In this document: positions 3,070-16,608 of the stretch, piece by piece
Layout of the letters: each line of letters opens with the position of its first letter
Numbering within the stretch: the stretch's first letter is position 1
Source of the DNA: Bacteroidia bacterium
GTDB lineage: Bacteria > Bacteroidota > Bacteroidia > Bacteroidales > Azobacteroidaceae
Reading direction: 5' to 3'
Assembly: GCA_025996895.1 (NCBI GenBank)
Contig: BNTW01000049.1
Location: 1 to 21,196 of the forward strand
DNA length: 21,196 nt
Program-made: the position numbers and the translations under genes
Notes under the pieces: model-generated
What the model saw: only the letters and a program-made list of their open reading frames with translations
Told to the model about the DNA's origin: nothing
Database searches by the model: none

Positions 3070-3130
3070 AAGTTTCTGAAACTAATAATAATTTAAAAGG
3101 AATTTTGTTTTGAGAACTTGTTTAAACGCA

Positions 3131-3242
3131 GAAAAAGGGAATTCTCCCGAACTCCCTAATCCAATCTTTGTTAACCTTAAATCTAATACTATTATGAAAA
3201 AACCACGATACAAAAGTACAACATGAAATTGTATTTTGTCAA
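3131..3242 (-). ncRNA. Candidate small RNA between ackA and dnaK
   Basis: A minus-strand promoter with TTG (3242-3240), a 21-base spacer and TACTTTTG (3218-3211) predicts a start near 3205. The terminator at 3156-3132 follows about 50 bases later, giving a transcript of roughly 75 bases with no sizeable ORF. It contains the stretch AAGGTTAACAAAGATTGG (about 3181-3164) and the terminal hairpin. Alternatives are an internal promoter reading through to dnaK, or a plus-strand leader for the ten-codon ORF starting with ATGAAAAAA at 3194. Together with the dnaK promoter this covers the gene-free stretch 2961-3283. Confidence 0.35.
3132..3156 (-). terminator. Terminator downstream of ackA
   Basis: On the minus strand GGGAGTTC-GGGA-GAATTCCC forms an 8-bp stem (one G-U pair) with a 4-base loop, followed by TTTTT (3136-3132). 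It lies 128 bases after the ackA stop and upstream of the dnaK promoter region. It may end the pta-ackA transcript, a short RNA starting near 3205, or both. Confidence 0.65.
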
Positions 3243-11748: not shown

Positions 11749-13184
11749 ATGAGAAAAGTTTTGATATTCTTCGGGATTTTGTTTTTTGTTCAGCCGGTTC
11801 GGTAAAGAGTTGAATAACAAAGGAATATTAAAAGAAGAAACTGCCATAATCAAAGCGGTGGGAGATGACGACGAAAATAAATTGCGGGCGGTGCTCGATT
11901 TGGTGCGCGAAAAAATCAAATGGAACGACCAGGAAAGAATATTTATCAACGGTGTTTCAAAGGCATTGAAAGAAGGCGTCGGAAACAGTGCACAAATCAA
12001 CTCTGTGCTTTTGAATACCTTGAAAAATGCGGGATACAACGCCAATCCGGTGGCGATGAGCCTTCGTTCACACAGACGGCTTCCTTTGACTTATCCGAGT
12101 ATCGACAATTTCAATTATTTTGTGGTACAGGTAGTTACGCCGGAAAAAACGTATTATTTGGACGTCACTCGCTCTTACACCGACCTCAATCTGCTTCCGG
12201 TGGATTGTTTGGTCGATCGAGCGTTATGTATTCAGACGAACGGATACAATTGGATTGATTTGTCGGCCGTTTGCACCGGCTCGGAACGTATCAGCCTGCT
12301 GCTTTCCTTTAACGAAGACGGCTATTGGCCGGCAAAAAAATGGCTTCTTATGGGGGCGAATCGGCCTTTTCTTTCCGCAAAGATTATGTTCAGACAAAAG
12401 ATGAAGCAACGTATATAGAAGATTTGGAAACGAAAAACGACATCAGTATTTCCAATTATAAAACGGATGAAAAACGCAATCCGGCACTCAGTTGCACCGA
12501 AACATACGATTTCGCTTCCAACGGCAATACTTTGGGCGACGAGGAGTTGATTGTGATTAATCCGTTGCTGTTTGAAGGATTGAAAAACAATGTTTTCAAA
12601 TCGGAAGAACGGAAATTGCCGGTCGAGTTTTATTATCCGCGTGACGAACGGATTAATGTCAGTTTTACTATTCCCGAAGGTTATGCCATAGAGGAAGTGC
12701 CTGTTTCCGAAAAATATTTGTACGGCGACAGCAACTTACTGGAATACAGCTATATCGTGCAAAAAAGCGAAACAACGGTGCAAATCGCCTACCGGCTGAC
12801 GATTAAAACCTGTATTGTTCCGGCGACCGAATACGAATTACTGCGCGATTTTTGGGCGAAAATATGTGCAAAAAATAATCAAGTCATTGTTCTACCCGGA
12901 AATACGATATTGTCCTGAAATCAACTATCCATCAAAAAGATACGGTTTCTATCCAAATTCCGGAAGGCTACGAAATCGAAACCCGTCCCAAACCGACGGA
13001 AATCGAATCGGAATACGGTTATTTCAAATCGGAATTTTCCGAACAAGCCGGCGAAATCACTTACAGGCAAGCGCTTGAAATCAAGCCGGGACGCTATCCC
13101 GCTTCCGCATTCGACGATATGAAGAAGTTTTACAACCGGATAGAGGCGTTGCAAAATACAAAAATCGGGCTGAAAGCGAAGTAG
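11749..13184 (+). pseudogene. Decayed DUF3857/transglutaminase-like secreted protein(s), two paralogue remnants
   Basis: Three reading frames together cover one degraded locus. A signal peptide (MRKVLIFFGILFFVQ, from 11749) soon meets a stop. From about 11790 in another frame comes the helical and transglutaminase-like core (KIKWND; GNSAQIN, where the family often has Ser instead of the catalytic Cys; FNYFVVQV; YYLDVTRS) up to about 12335. At the A7 run 12334-12340 the frame shifts again and continues through AFSFRKDY, INPLLF and IPEGYAIEE to NNQVIVL at about 12893. In the third frame (from about 12897) a second C-terminal piece follows, RKYDIVLKS...IPEGYEIE...LKPGRYPA-like, ending at TAG 13184. 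It repeats the same domain end and so comes from a paralogue. The roughly 200-residue DUF3857 domain expected after the signal peptide is missing. Confidence 0.75.
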
Positions 13185-13276: not shown

Positions 13277-13284
13277 TATCTTTG
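13277..13284 (+). promoter_or_regulatory. hipB promoter -7 box
   Basis: TATCTTTG matches TAnnTTTG. It lies between operators 2 and 3, so bound HipB would block both promoter elements. The predicted start near 13290 gives a leader of only about 12 bases. Confidence 0.6.
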
Positions 13285-13298
13285 TACCCAAACAGGTA
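13285..13298. promoter_or_regulatory. HipB operator 3 (proximal)
   Basis: TACCCAAACAGGTA, a TACC-N6-GGTA palindrome immediately after the -7 box and covering the expected start of transcription. Its centre is 41 bp from operator 2. Confidence 0.75.
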
Positions 13299-13302
13299 TA
13301 AT

Positions 13303-13524
13303 ATGGAACAATTATCGTTATCAAAGTATGTGAAGCAGGTGCGAAAACAGTATGGTTTGACGCAGGTTGATTTGTCTGAAAAGGCGGGAGTCGGGCTTCG
13401 TTTTGTCAGAGAATTGGAACAAGGCAAACCCAACCTGCGAATGGATAAAGTGAATCAAGTACTTAGTTTGTTCGGAACAGAATTAGTGCCTGCGCCTGTA
13501 AATAAAACCACATTGAACGTATGA
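13303..13524 (+). CDS. hipB: HipB-like XRE-family antitoxin/repressor
   Basis: A 73-residue DNA-binding protein with an XRE-type helix-turn-helix: YVKQVRKQYGLTQVDLSEKAG, then VGLRFVRELEQGKPNLRMDKVNQVLSLFG. It is the first gene of a hipB-hipS-hipT operon and the presumed autorepressor at the three upstream palindromes. The ATG at 13303 is chosen because the protein then begins MEQLSLSKYV. An upstream in-frame TTG (13282) lies inside the -7 box and operator 3 and would not be in the transcript. The stop overlaps the next start (ATGA). In HipBST systems the HipB-like protein boosts neutralisation but HipS is the main antitoxin. Confidence 0.9.
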   Translation: MEQLSLSKYVKQVRKQYGLTQVDLSEKAGVGLRFVRELEQGKPNLRMDKVNQVLSLFGTELVPAPVNKTTLNV

Positions 13525-13850
13525 GACAAGCAAAAGTATATTTTCAAAATCAATTGGCAGGAATATTGACTGAAGATGAAAGCGGTTTTACATTTCTGTA
13601 TGATTCCGGTTATTTGCAAAATGAGGATTCGGAAGCCATCAGTCTGACGTTGCCTTTGCAAAAAGAGCCTTTCCGAGATACCGTTTTATTTCCATTCTTT
13701 GACGGATTGATTCCGGAAGGTTGGTTATTGAATATCGCCGAGAAAAATTGGAAAATCAATGGTCGCGACCGGATGTCTTTGCTTTTGGCTTGTTGCAAAG
13801 ATTGCATCGGCACAATCAGTATCGTACCGAATAATGTAGAGGAGGAATAA
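13521..13850 (+). CDS. hipS: HipS-like antitoxin (stand-alone HipA N-terminal subdomain)
   Basis: The 109-residue protein equals only the N-terminal subdomain of HipA (couple_hipA family): VYFQNQLAGILTEDESGFTFLYDSGYL, then AISLTLPL and the conserved FPFFDGLIPEGWLLNIAEK stretch. In classical HipA this is fused to the kinase; here it is a separate gene, as in tripartite HipBST where the small protein is the antitoxin that binds the kinase. It overlaps hipB by 4 bases (ATGA), and hipT starts 2 bases after its stop, so translational coupling is likely. A damaged partial copy of its 3' half lies at about 14812-14886. Confidence 0.85.
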   Translation: MRQAKVYFQNQLAGILTEDESGFTFLYDSGYLQNEDSEAISLTLPLQKEPFRDTVLFPFFDGLIPEGWLLNIAEKNWKINGRDRMSLLLACCKDCIGTISIVPNNVEEE

Positions 13851-13852
13851 AT

Positions 13853-14791
13853 ATGGGAAAATGTTTGTATTGCTACAAAGAATTAGAAGCAGGGCAAGTG
13901 GATTTTCATCCACAATGTTCTAAGGCGATTTTTGGAACGACAACGCCTCCTCTTCTTCCTTATACCCGTAAAAATCTGACGGAATTGGCAGAGCAAGTGA
14001 TAAGAACGCAAACGACTATCACGGGCGTTCAACCGAAATTATCCTTGGATTTTGCGGAAGAAGAGACTCCCAAACGCTTTACCATTGTTGGCTTATGGGG
14101 TAGATATATCCTAAAACCGCAAACGGAAATCTATCCAAGTCTTCCCGAGTTGGAAGATGTAACCATGCATTTGGCAAGCATAGCGAAGATACAAACGGTG
14201 CCTCATTCCCTCATTCGATTTGAAGACGGCGAACTTTGTTACATTACAAGAAGGATTGACAGAGGCGATAAGGGCGAGAAATACCCGATGGAAGATATGT
14301 GCCAATTGTCGGAACGGCTCACTGAATACAAGTATAAAGGTTCGTATGAACAGATTGCGAAGTTGATTCTGAAATATTCGCATACGCCTAAATTAGATGT
14401 GATTAACTTTTGGGAACAAGTGCTGTTTTGTTGGATAACAGGTAATGCGGATATGCACCTCAAGAATTTCTCTTTATACAGCATTCGCAAAAACATCTAC
14501 AACTTAACTCCGGCTTACGATATGCTTTCAACCGCCTTGATAATGCCCGAAGATAAGGAAGAGTTGGCATTAACCCTCAACGGCAAAAAACGAAAAATCA
14601 CGCGGGAGGATTTTATCAAAGCATTTCAATCATCTAATTTGGAGGATAAGATTATTGCCAATATTTTTGGAAAATTTGAGAAAGCGGTGCCGTTTTGGAT
14701 GGACTGTATTCATGATTGTTTTTTGGATGAGGGGATGAAAGAGCGGTATGTGGGGTTGATAAATGGGCGGATGGATACACTACGCAATTAA
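13853..14791 (+). CDS. hipT: HipT-like serine/threonine kinase toxin
   Basis: The 312-residue kinase is the C-terminal part of HipA as a separate protein. It starts with a CxxC...HxxxC element (C4, C7, H19, C22) that may bind zinc, then the Gly-rich/autophosphorylation loop TTITGVQPKLS (54-64), ATP-binding lysine in RYILKPQT (K88), catalytic loop GNADMHLKNFSL (197-208; D200, N205) and metal-binding PAYDML (D223). All key kinase residues are present, so it should be active. HipA phosphorylates GltX and HipT phosphorylates TrpS in E. coli; the target here is unknown. HipS, encoded just upstream, should neutralise it. The operon ends near 14791 and a hairpin terminator lies at 14945. Confidence 0.88.
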   Translation: MGKCLYCYKELEAGQVDFHPQCSKAIFGTTTPPLLPYTRKNLTELAEQVIRTQTTITGVQPKLSLDFAEEETPKRFTIVGLWGRYILKPQTEIYPSLPELEDVTMHLASIAKIQTVPHSLIRFEDGELCYITRRIDRGDKGEKYPMEDMCQLSERLTEYKYKGSYEQIAKLILKYSHTPKLDVINFWEQVLFCWITGNADMHLKNFSLYSIRKNIYNLTPAYDMLSTALIMPEDKEELALTLNGKKRKITREDFIKAFQSSNLEDKIIANIFGKFEKAVPFWMDCIHDCFLDEGMKERYVGLINGRMDTLRN

Positions 14792-14922: not shown

Positions 14923-14944
14923 TCCAAAAATTGTGTAAATGAAA

Positions 14945-14974
14945 ACTACAGACCGGAAAGTTTGTAGTTTTTTT
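14945..14974 (+). terminator. Terminator hairpin at the hip side (copy A)
   Basis: Stem ACTACAGAC / GTTTGTAGT (one G-U pair), loop CGGAAA, then a run of seven T on the plus strand. It should end transcripts coming from hipBST. Confidence 0.75.
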
Positions 14975-15195
14975 GTGCGCCGTGCATGGCAATTAACTTG
15001 GCATTCGCTTAAAGTCATTACTATTTGGTAAATAAGCTTTGTTCCAAAATATACATTGCACAGCCGGCTAAATATCCTGGTTAGCCCTTGTCGGATATTT
15101 AGCCGGCTGTGCAATGTATATTTTGGAACAAAGCTTATTTACCAAATAGTAATGACTTTAAGCGAATGCCAAGTTAATTGCCATGCACGGCGCAC

Positions 15196-15231
15196 AAAAA
15201 AACTACAAACTTTCCGGTTTGTAGTTTTTTT
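15196..15231. terminator. Symmetric terminator hairpin at the B/C junction
   Basis: A7, stem CTACAAAC / GTTTGTAG, loop TTTCCG, T7: a perfect bidirectional terminator 47 bases after the nhaD stop. The loop is reverse-oriented relative to the hairpin at 14945, marking it as the fold-back junction. Confidence 0.8.
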
Positions 15232-15277
15232 GTGCGCCGTGCATGGCAATTAACTTGGCATTCGCTTAAAGTCATTA

Positions 15278-16558
15278 CTATTTGGTAAATAAGCTTTGTT
15301 CCAAAATATACATTGCACAGCCGGCTAAATATCCGACAAGGGCTAACCAGGATATTTTTTTGAGATACCAGATAAAGTCGATTTTTTCCATTCCCATCAC
15401 GGCAACGCCCGCTGCTGAGCCGATAATCAAAATGCTGCCTCCTGTGCCGGCGGTATAAGCCAGAAATTCCCAAAAATAATGATCCATCGGGAAATCATAC
15501 ATGCCCATCGCACCGGCTACCAACGGCACATTATCGACAATGGACGAAAGAACTCCAATAATCGTTGTAATCAAATAATATTTGCCCGGCTCTGCCATCG
15601 GGATTTTGTCGAGCGAAGCGGAAAGTGCTGCTAATTGTCCGCAGGTTTGCAACGCATTTACTGCCATCAAAATACCCAAAAAGAACAGAATGCTCGGCGT
15701 ATCAATACGAGTTAATATATTATTGACGGAAAGGAAGTTGCTGTCTTTTTCGGGACGCCTTTTGTGCATAAATCCGGTAACAATCCAGAGTACGCCCAAT
15801 CCACCCAGCATGCCCAGATACGGCGGCAAATGCGTAATGGTTTTGAAAACCGGAACAAAAAGCAACGCTCCTACACCCAAAAAGAAAACGAAATTGCGTT
15901 CCCCATTGGAAATCGAGAAACGATGAGCGTTTTCCACCGCTTTTTCCGGCCGGCTCACGTTCCCTTTCAGCGTAAAAGAAAGTATTAAAATCGGAACGAT
16001 AATTGAGACTGTGCTCGCCAAAAACGTAGCTGCAATAATATGAACAGCACTTACTTTGCCCGCAATCCACAACATAATCGTGGTTACATCACCAATCGGC
16101 GACCAAGCACCGCCCGCGTTCGCCGCCAAAATAACAATTCCGGCAAAAAACCAGCGGTCGTTTTTATCCCCAATCAACTTGCGCAGAAGGGCAATCATCA
16201 CAATCGAAGTCGTCAGGTTGTCCAAAACGGCCGACATGAAAAAAGTGATTATGCTGATAATCCACAGAAGCGTTGTCTTCTTGGTGGTAGAAATCTTGTC
16301 GGTAATAATCCGAAAACCTTCATGCACATCGACCAACTCGACAATCGTCATCGCACCCATCAGGAAAAACAGAATTTCGGCAACTTCCCCCAGCTGTTCG
16401 ACCAGCGTGTCGTGTGCTTCCGGCAGATAAGTGATGCCCAACACCCACATCACCGTTCCGAGCAACAGAGCGGTCGCACTTTTATTAATATGTAACGGGT
16501 GCTCCAGCGCAATGCACGCATAGCCTATCACAAAGACGATTATCATTAAAACGAACAT
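15278..16558 (-). CDS. nhaD: Na+/H+ antiporter, NhaD type
   Basis: Inner-membrane antiporter of the NhaD/ArsB ion-transporter superfamily, exporting Na+ (or Li+) in exchange for H+. The 426-residue protein is almost wholly hydrophobic with about 11-12 transmembrane helices. Family motifs are LPEAHDTLVEQLGEVAEILFFLMGAMTIVELVD, the SAVLDNLTTSIV motif and the later SSIVDNVPLVAGAMGMY motif, with acidic residues in the helix breaks, and GGAWSPIGDVTT. The ATG at 16558 (MFVLMIIVFVIGYACIAL) is chosen because the open frame further upstream runs through the divergent mutS gene and is not hydrophobic. The last 19 codons and the terminator are part of the triplication downstream. Confidence 0.95.
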   Translation of the reverse strand: MFVLMIIVFVIGYACIALEHPLHINKSATALLLGTVMWVLGITYLPEAHDTLVEQLGEVAEILFFLMGAMTIVELVDVHEGFRIITDKISTTKKTTLLWIISIITFFMSAVLDNLTTSIVMIALLRKLIGDKNDRWFFAGIVILAANAGGAWSPIGDVTTIMLWIAGKVSAVHIIAATFLASTVSIIVPILILSFTLKGNVSRPEKAVENAHRFSISNGERNFVFFLGVGALLFVPVFKTITHLPPYLGMLGGLGVLWIVTGFMHKRRPEKDSNFLSVNNILTRIDTPSILFFLGILMAVNALQTCGQLAALSASLDKIPMAEPGKYYLITTIIGVLSSIVDNVPLVAGAMGMYDFPMDHYFWEFLAYTAGTGGSILIIGSAAGVAVMGMEKIDFIWYLKKISWLALVGYLAGCAMYILEQSLFTK

Positions 16559-16588
16559 AGATATAATTTTAGAAATTAAAAACGGCAA

Positions 16589-16596
16589 CAAAGATA
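16589..16596 (-). promoter_or_regulatory. nhaD -7 promoter box
   Basis: Minus-strand TATCTTTG fits TAnnTTTG. The start is expected near 16582 with a leader of about 24 bases. It supports the ATG at 16558 over earlier in-frame codons. Confidence 0.5.
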
Positions 16597-16608
16597 AGGA
16601 ATATTTAG

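What the first reader, a model, noticed from the sequence alone, without database searches (positions are those of the whole stretch)
14942..15357. Short direct-inverted-direct triplication with both junctions at hairpin sequences
Seen directly: three copies of the nhaD 3' end in order direct, inverted, direct. In intact copy C the element AATATCC-(15 bases)-GGATATT (15328-15356) is itself a small inverted repeat, and at the A/B junction that 15-base spacer is present in reverse orientation. At the B/C junction the terminator hairpin loop (CGGAAA in copy A) is likewise flipped to TTTCCG. This is what two snap-back or template-switch events at quasi-palindromes predict, the model proposed for symmetric tandem inversion duplications. 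Such a small, nearly identical example (1 mismatch in 136) would be very young. Long perfect palindromes are usually unstable in cells, so its persistence is itself notable.
Basis: partly seen in the sequence, partly recalled or inferred. Interest (0 to 1): 0.8.

Follow-up and report, generated by a model that had tools for sequence, protein, structure and literature searches.

The report
Small inverted triplication beside nhaD
A 140-base piece at the end of a bacterial gene has been copied twice more beside itself, the middle copy backwards, and small flipped markers at the joins show how a DNA-copying error probably made it; structures of this size were recently described in yeast and tumours.

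Summary
Three copies of the nhaD 3' end lie direct-inverted-direct: B/C palindrome arms are 141 nt, no mismatch, 6-nt loop; A/B arms are 136 nt, one mismatch, 15-nt loop. Nothing comparable was found in the rest of 786 kb sampled from this genome. It has the architecture of the "small inverted triplication" (SIT) named in 2026 from yeast and cancers. Replaying 12 template-switch histories, only two give the sequence exactly: inter-strand switches on oppositely moving strands, or an inter-strand switch followed by a fold-back. Double fold-back, and two inter-strand switches by one strand, fail. The single mismatch is thus explained by the switch, not decay, and "very young" is not shown. No SbcD passes its cut-off and no SbcC was found in this genome; loss of either stabilised SITs in E. 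coli. That may explain persistence, but a palindrome survey gave mixed results. Main caveat: a draft assembly without reads, so a chimera is not excluded. Each copy also carries a 27-nt stub of a group II intron.

The parts
14942..15077 (+). Copy A (direct): left terminator hairpin, intron stub, end of nhaD up to the right arm AAATATCC; joined to the hip-side flank
14942..14971 (+). Left inverted repeat in its outer (inferred ancestral) state: arms 14942-14953 and 14960-14971 (12 bp, one mismatch at 14951), loop CGGAAA 14954-14959; terminator-like hairpin followed by T7 in the hip direction
15078..15092 (.). A/B junction spacer: reverse complement of the native 15-nt spacer at 15335-15349
15070..15210 (-). 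Copy B (inverted): exact reverse complement of 15217-15357
15211..15216 (.). B/C junction loop TTTCCG: reverse complement of the loop in copy A; flanked by arms that are now perfect (15208/15219)
15217..15357 (+). Copy C (direct), continuous with the intact nhaD gene; holds the native right inverted repeat 15327-15334 / 15335-15349 / 15350-15357 inside the nhaD coding sequence
   Evidence: spacer orientation supported by 4 genus relatives whose match runs across it (G013, G029, G002, G010)
14975..15001 (+). 27-nt stub of the 5' end of a group II intron, directly after the T tract; repeated at 15169-15195 (-) and 15232-15258 (+)
15278..16600 (-). nhaD, NhaD-type Na+/H+ antiporter; intact, its last 80 nt lie in copy C
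   Evidence: passes the cut-off of NF038006, 160.9 against 80 bits; below that of TIGR00775, 408.5 against 577.1
13282..14791 (+). hipB-like HTH, HipA N-terminal and HipA C-terminal genes, convergent with nhaD; left flank

Best explanation
A small symmetric inverted triplication (SIT) made by a DNA replication error. Shown: a unit bounded by two short interrupted inverted repeats (a terminator-like stem on the left, an 8-bp repeat inside nhaD on the right) is present as direct-inverted-direct, outer spacers native (the left one by parsimony only) and both inner spacers flipped. Inferred: a nascent strand copying leftwards from the nhaD side copied at least 10 of 12 bases of the near arm of the stem, moved to the partner strand, paired with its far arm and copied back. 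The second junction arose either by the same kind of inter-strand switch on an oppositely moving strand, giving a hairpin-ended or inverted-dimer intermediate recombined into the locus, or by fold-back of the same strand at the right repeat. The structure probably survives in part because this genome appears to lack SbcCD. It leaves nhaD intact and may give it a better terminator; no selected function is claimed.
For: Repeat geometry. Replay of 12 histories for each of 5 left switch positions: with the switch past the stem mismatch (10-12 arm bases copied), 0 differences for 'independent inter/inter' and for 'from nhaD side, inter then snap', 1 difference for 'from hip side, inter then snap', 6-20 for the other nine. 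Spacer inversion with arm homogenisation is a published outcome of an intermolecular switch during the first arm (PMC8604942, passages). Size and junctions resemble SITs: medians 148/160/148 bp, spacer 30, junction 6 (PMC13334657, parts 1-4 of 8 read). Loss of sbcC, sbcD or rep stabilised SITs in E. coli; G000 has only a 33-bit SbcD match against a cut-off of 77.65, in a protein that scores better as LpxG/YaeI-type phosphoesterase, and no SbcC match at E<=1e-3 (11 of 20 first-look candidates scored). RecA is present.
Against: No reads and no unduplicated sister genome. The native state of the left loop rests on parsimony. In wild-type E. coli SITs fell only to about half and then stayed, so SbcCD does not fully erase them and its absence is not required for persistence; rep was not looked for here. 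No genome of the 58 passes the SbcC cut-off, so SbcC absence rests on E-values. The PolA 5'-3' exonuclease domain, the bacterial counterpart of FEN1 (recalled), is present, so the defect that drives SITs in yeast is not evident. Spacers of 6 and 15 nt are short against the 40-80 bp preferred at yeast ODIRA junctions (PMC10766183, passages). Palindrome density follows SbcD status within the genus (14 in 331 kb without, 0 in 235 kb with) but not in the order (2 in 351 kb without, 3 in 293 kb with), nor in G000 outside this locus (4 in 786 kb). A spacer might also flip later by recombination between the long arms, which would blur the readout.
Confidence: 0.7

Rival explanations
1. Assembly or amplification artefact: the genome has one copy, and chimeric molecules formed at the two hairpins (for example in multiple displacement amplification) were stitched into the contig.
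For: Draft assembly of 258 contigs, library type unknown. MDA gave about one chimera per 22 kb, 85% inverted, often primed at 2-21 nt of complementarity (PMC1855051, passages); a single inter-strand chimera also flips the spacer. Of 12 exact matches of 40 nt or more at stretch starts of the G000 sample, 10 are 127 nt long, suggesting a k=127 short-read graph; the longest exact self-match here, 141 nt, exceeds that.
Against: Two inter-strand switches by one MDA strand would not flip both spacers, so two separate chimeras would be needed and the true single-copy form would have to be missing. At k=127 the 126-nt A/B match is resolved, so reads joining the A-specific base 14951 to the flipped spacer should have existed (inference). 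Inverted exact repeats of 40 nt or more within 6 kb occur in 785,745 sampled bases only here, three times in L117 (which holds group II introns) and once in L176 (42 nt). The assembly resolves other repeats over 127 nt (774, 185, 157, 145 nt).
Confidence: 0.2
2. Fold-back (snap-back) tandem inversion duplication in the manner proposed for Salmonella: the nascent strand folds on itself at one repeat and returns at the other.
For: Same final architecture, bounded by short inverted repeats; the model is described in PMC4689423 (passages).
Against: Fold-back at both junctions is off by 7-20 bases, and every one-strand history starting with a fold-back is off by 7 or more. Fold-back survives only as the second step after an inter-strand switch, or with later spacer flips.
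Confidence: 0.06
3. Selected regulatory structure: the triplication is kept because it makes a strong bidirectional terminator or a long dsRNA hairpin between hip and nhaD.
For: In the nhaD direction the predicted stem goes from -9.7 (40-nt fragment) to -12.9 kcal/mol (35-nt fragment) and is followed by T7 in place of T4.
Against: By eye none of the 29 nhaD downstream stretches displayed has it, and the triplication scan of 232 sequences found it only here apart from REP-like pairs in L149. The hip side already has a hairpin of -13.6 kcal/mol with T7 in copy A.
Confidence: 0.04

Closest known systems
Small inverted triplication (SIT), yeast rad27 mutants and human cancers (PMC13334657, parts 1-4 of 8 read)
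   Same: Direct-inverted-direct, about 140 bp per copy, short spacers, short reverse-complementary junctions at both ends
   Different: In the assembled chromosome of a wild bacterium, not a mutant; no FEN1-type defect evident; spacers 15 and 6 nt against a median of 30
Tandem inversion duplications / inverted triplications of bacteria under Lac selection (Salmonella, Kugelberg 2010, not held; E. coli, PMC3161906, passages)
   Same: Bacterial, two inverted junctions at microhomology, template-switch origin
   Different: Those in E. coli are 5.2-42.6 kb and amplified under selection; here 0.14 kb, unamplified, both palindromic junctions intact
[quoted passage not shown]
   Same: Junctions at short interrupted inverted repeats; two inter-strand switches on opposite strands give exactly the observed spacers
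   Different: No replication origin is expected in a 118-141 bp unit; repeat spacing is shorter than the preferred 40-80 bp
Quasi-palindrome correction and spacer inversion by template switch (PMC8604942, PMC5677150, passages)
   Same: Arms homogenised and spacer inverted
   Different: There the strand returns at the same repeat; here the copy-back ran on to the next inverted repeat

Membership tests
Small inverted triplication | DUP/IN/DUP architecture in one locus | tested here: met
Small inverted triplication | Size near 148/160/148 bp | tested here: met
   118-nt common core, 136-141 nt units against medians
Small inverted triplication | Reverse-complementary junctions of a few bp with short spacers | tested here: met
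   8 bp/15 nt and 12 bp (11 paired)/6 nt; medians 6 bp and 30 nt
Small inverted triplication | Arises from an Okazaki-fragment maturation defect (FEN1/Rad27) | tested here: inconclusive
   PolA-type 5'-3' exonuclease domain present in a 970-aa open frame; activity and history unknown
Small inverted triplication | Stabilised when SbcCD is absent | tested here: inconclusive
   SbcCD not found in G000, but stability was not measured and the palindrome survey was mixed
[quoted passage not shown]
   Right repeat lies in nhaD coding sequence, matched across by 4 relatives; left repeat has no relative to compare
ODIRA product | Inner spacers as made by leading-to-lagging switches at both ends | tested here: met
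   0 differences for independent inter/inter; not exclusive, one other history also gives 0
ODIRA product | Replication origin inside the amplified unit | not testable with these tools
   Unit holds a terminator-like hairpin, an intron stub and a gene end; an origin is not expected
Fold-back TID (Salmonella model) | First junction keeps the native spacer orientation | tested here: not met
   Both inner spacers are flipped; one-strand histories beginning with fold-back differ by 7-20 bases

The most novel reading that the evidence does not exclude
The event was triggered by a group II intron. Introns of this kind in the genus sit right after terminator hairpins, and the left switch site is such a hairpin with a 27-nt intron stub beside it in every copy. 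An aborted retrohoming that left intron RNA or a nick in one strand could have stalled replication at that hairpin and forced the switch, so that intron stubs and inverted triplications would be two scars of one kind of failed insertion.
Probability: 0.05. Interest if true: 0.75.

Novelty: new member of a known kind. Interest (0 to 1): 0.45.

Why it matters
SITs were named in 2026 from yeast mutants and tumours, and their authors state that the events driving the second switch remain unresolved. This locus carries three markers (two asymmetric spacers and one stem mismatch) that together exclude most histories, and it sits in a genome apparently without SbcCD, one of the factors that remove SITs in E. 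coli. If confirmed, it shows that SITs are part of natural bacterial genome evolution, and that spacer orientation at both junctions can help separate fold-back from strand-switch models in any genome with long reads.

Tried and rejected
Besides this locus, the matches fall on nhaD's own end or on the intron-start part, with one short match each in G012 and G018 that I did not look into; no empty site was seen. Plasmid records gave one distant nhaD.

Chance or a genome-wide habit: rejected. The inverted-pair scan (386 kb own, 765 kb other loci) found one further pair (31 bp, L030); the triplication scan covered 232 sequences (231 loci and the window, 2.8 Mb, this locus present in four of them) and hit only this locus and L149, which holds two inverted REP-like pairs.

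SbcCD loss as a general cause of palindromes: tested with 80 stretches from relatives (scan; 6 + 6 genus genomes, 9 + 13 order genomes). It fits within the genus and fails in the order; stretches were chosen by hand, and phylogeny and assembly gaps are confounders.

MDA-like signature elsewhere: looked for and not found, which does not prove an unamplified library. The 127-nt start-overlap signature was looked for in other sets too: none in three sets, and the fourth was swamped by one repetitive contig. The terminator scanner found nothing, presumably because it demands three G-C pairs; the folds were used instead. Rfam on the window gave one sRNA far from the locus. One literature search returned mostly unrelated papers.

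Full report
What is there. The window is contig 49 of an unnamed draft genome (3,121,437 bases, 258 contigs, 97.7% complete, 0.47% contamination). Among named records, the closest NhaD proteins are in 'Candidatus Symbiothrix', 'Dysgonamonadaceae' and 'Bacteroidia' records (that such labels point to termite guts is recalled). A hipBA-like set of genes (13282-14791, +) faces nhaD (15278-16600, -). Between them lie three copies of the nhaD 3' end: A 14942-15077 direct, B 15070-15210 inverted, C 15217-15357 direct and continuous with the gene. The B/C palindrome has 141-nt arms with no mismatch and a 6-nt loop; the A/B palindrome has 136-nt arms with one mismatch and a 15-nt loop. The common 118-nt core is identical in all three copies.

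Junctions. The right boundary is AAATATCC-15 nt-GGATATTT inside nhaD; its spacer is native in C, where four genus relatives match across it in the same orientation (G013, G029, G002, G010; 77-83% identity), and reversed at A/B. The left boundary is a terminator-like stem, AAAACTACAGAC-CGGAAA-GTTTGTAGTTTT in A, with one imperfect pair at 14951. At B/C the loop is reversed and the stem is perfect. That A holds the native left state follows from its continuity with the flank; no downstream stretch I displayed from relatives resembles it (by eye).

Replay. I built the single-copy locus by joining the flanks and replayed inter-strand switch and fold-back at the two repeats, for a strand entering from either side and for two independent events joined by recombination: 12 histories, each with 8 to 12 bases of the left arm copied before the switch. 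Two histories give the observed sequence with 0 differences: independent inter-strand switches at both ends, and a strand from the nhaD side that switches strands at the terminator and then folds back at the right repeat. Both need at least 10 of 12 arm bases copied, that is, past the imperfect pair; with 8 or 9 they are off by one. A strand from the hip side (inter, then fold-back) is off by one base, the stem mismatch, at every position. With 10-12 bases the remaining nine histories are off by 6 to 20. So at least one inter-strand switch is needed in every surviving history, and pure fold-back fails. The logic agrees with the published statement that spacer inversion arises when the first switch is intermolecular and falls in the first arm (PMC8604942, passages).

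Age. The one mismatch is accounted for by the switch. That leaves 0 substitutions in 3 x 118 sites, a 95% upper bound near 0.85% per site. This does not show that the event is very young, and gene conversion between copies could reset it.

Why it persists. In E. coli, plasmid-borne SITs fell to about half by day 4 and then stayed near that level; [quoted passage not shown]). In G000 the SbcD model finds nothing over its cut-off (best 33 bits of 77.65; 6 of 6 candidates scored), and the SbcC model nothing at E<=1e-3 (11 of 20 candidates scored). The weak SbcD match lies in a 364-aa protein that scores better as an LpxG/YaeI-type phosphoesterase, though below those cut-offs too. SbcD passes the cut-off in 16 of 58 genomes, 7 of 34 in this genus counting G000, and 2 of 10 genus members that are at least 90% complete with at most 5% contamination (my count from the table). 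SbcC passes its stricter cut-off in 0 of 58, but 14 of the 16 SbcD genomes have an SbcC match at E<=1e-35 (my count). So absence is common in the lineage and not just a gap in this assembly. RecA and the PolA-type 5'-3' exonuclease domain are present; rep was not searched. As a general test, long palindromes (arms of 20 or more matched bases, gap up to 200) were 14 in 331 kb of genus members without SbcD, 0 in 235 kb with it, 2 in 351 kb of order members without, 3 in 293 kb with, and 6 in 786 kb of G000, two of them this locus. That is mixed, and I do not claim a general rule.

Could it be an artefact? In the G000 sample 10 of 12 exact matches at stretch starts are 127 nt long, which points to a k=127 short-read graph (inference). 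The A/B match (126 nt) is below that and the B/C match (141 nt) above it; other exact repeats of 145-774 nt are present in the sample, so something beyond k, probably paired reads, bridged them. MDA makes inverted chimeras often (PMC1855051, passages), and I do not know whether this library was amplified. But inverted exact repeats of 40 nt or more within 6 kb occur in the sample only here, three times in L117 (which holds group II introns) and once in L176, and a one-strand double inter-strand switch does not fit the spacers. I put an artefact at 0.2; only reads can settle it.

Consequence for the genes. nhaD stays intact in C. In its direction the predicted stem changes from -9.7 to -12.9 kcal/mol (fragments of 40 and 35 nt) and is followed by T7 in place of T4. 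This may improve termination; I have no evidence of selection.

The intron stub. Each copy contains GTGCGCCGTGCATGGCAATTAACTTGG directly after the T tract. It matches the 5' end of a group II intron: five copies in this genome match Rfam RF02001, one of them cut by a contig end, and one carries a group II reverse transcriptase/maturase (TIGR04416, 417.5 bits against a cut-off of 300). Insertion right after terminators is known for bacterial class C introns (PMC8919778, passages); I did not classify this intron. Of 17 places in 6 of 58 genomes (the three copies here counted as one), 12 continue into intron sequence, 4 (this one included) stop at nucleotide 26-27 and 1 stops near 42 (by eye). 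Three of the 4 stubs follow a terminator-like hairpin by eye; the one in G002:C384 does not clearly. The pattern required a match through nucleotide 26, so shorter stubs could be missed; a 16-nt pattern added 7 places, none after a T tract by eye. The stub here differs in letters from the full introns of its own genome (GTGCG against GTGTG), which argues against a very recent joint origin with the triplication.

Literature. Nothing I saw in the searches (15 of 210 listed; 1 of 1; 15 of 41; 30 of 45; 12 of 12) described a small inverted triplication resident in a wild bacterial chromosome; the bacterial cases seen are kilobase-scale under Lac selection (PMC3161906, passages). Most subscription papers are not held, so this is not proof of absence.

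Verdict. A recently named kind of replication accident, in an unusual place, with unusually informative junctions. Real with probability about 0.8, and made by the proposed route with probability about 0.7.

Noticed in passing
window 14975-15001, 15169-15195 (-), 15232-15258; L252 (G000:C1), L254 (G006:C16), L264 (G002:C384): Solo 26-27 nt stubs of the 5' end of a group II intron, with the same end point at 4 of 17 intron-start places; 12 of the 17 continue into intron sequence. How a 5' stub with a fixed end arises is unexplained; the search pattern could not see shorter stubs.
   Followed up: partly
G000 and same-genus genomes: SbcD passes its cut-off in only 7 of 34 genomes of the genus (own included), and SbcC matches largely follow it, suggesting repeated or early loss of SbcCD.
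   Followed up: partly
L117 12621-14965 (G000:C55): Two group II introns facing each other over about 2.3 kb, with a reverse transcriptase/maturase frame between them.
   Followed up: no
L149 (G028:C337) 12206-12901: Two inverted pairs of a REP-like element (GGGATTGCGGGTCAAGCCCGCAATGAC) 0.6 kb apart; the only other hit of the triplication scan.
   Followed up: no
window 3128-3206 (-): Rfam match RF04319 BTncRNA_FopS, a Bacteroidetes sRNA family, just over its gathering score (57.5 against 56).
   Followed up: no
L125 (G000:C60) 9581 and 10415: Exact direct repeat of 774 nt, start to start 834 nt, present in the assembly; a tandem-like duplication.
   Followed up: no
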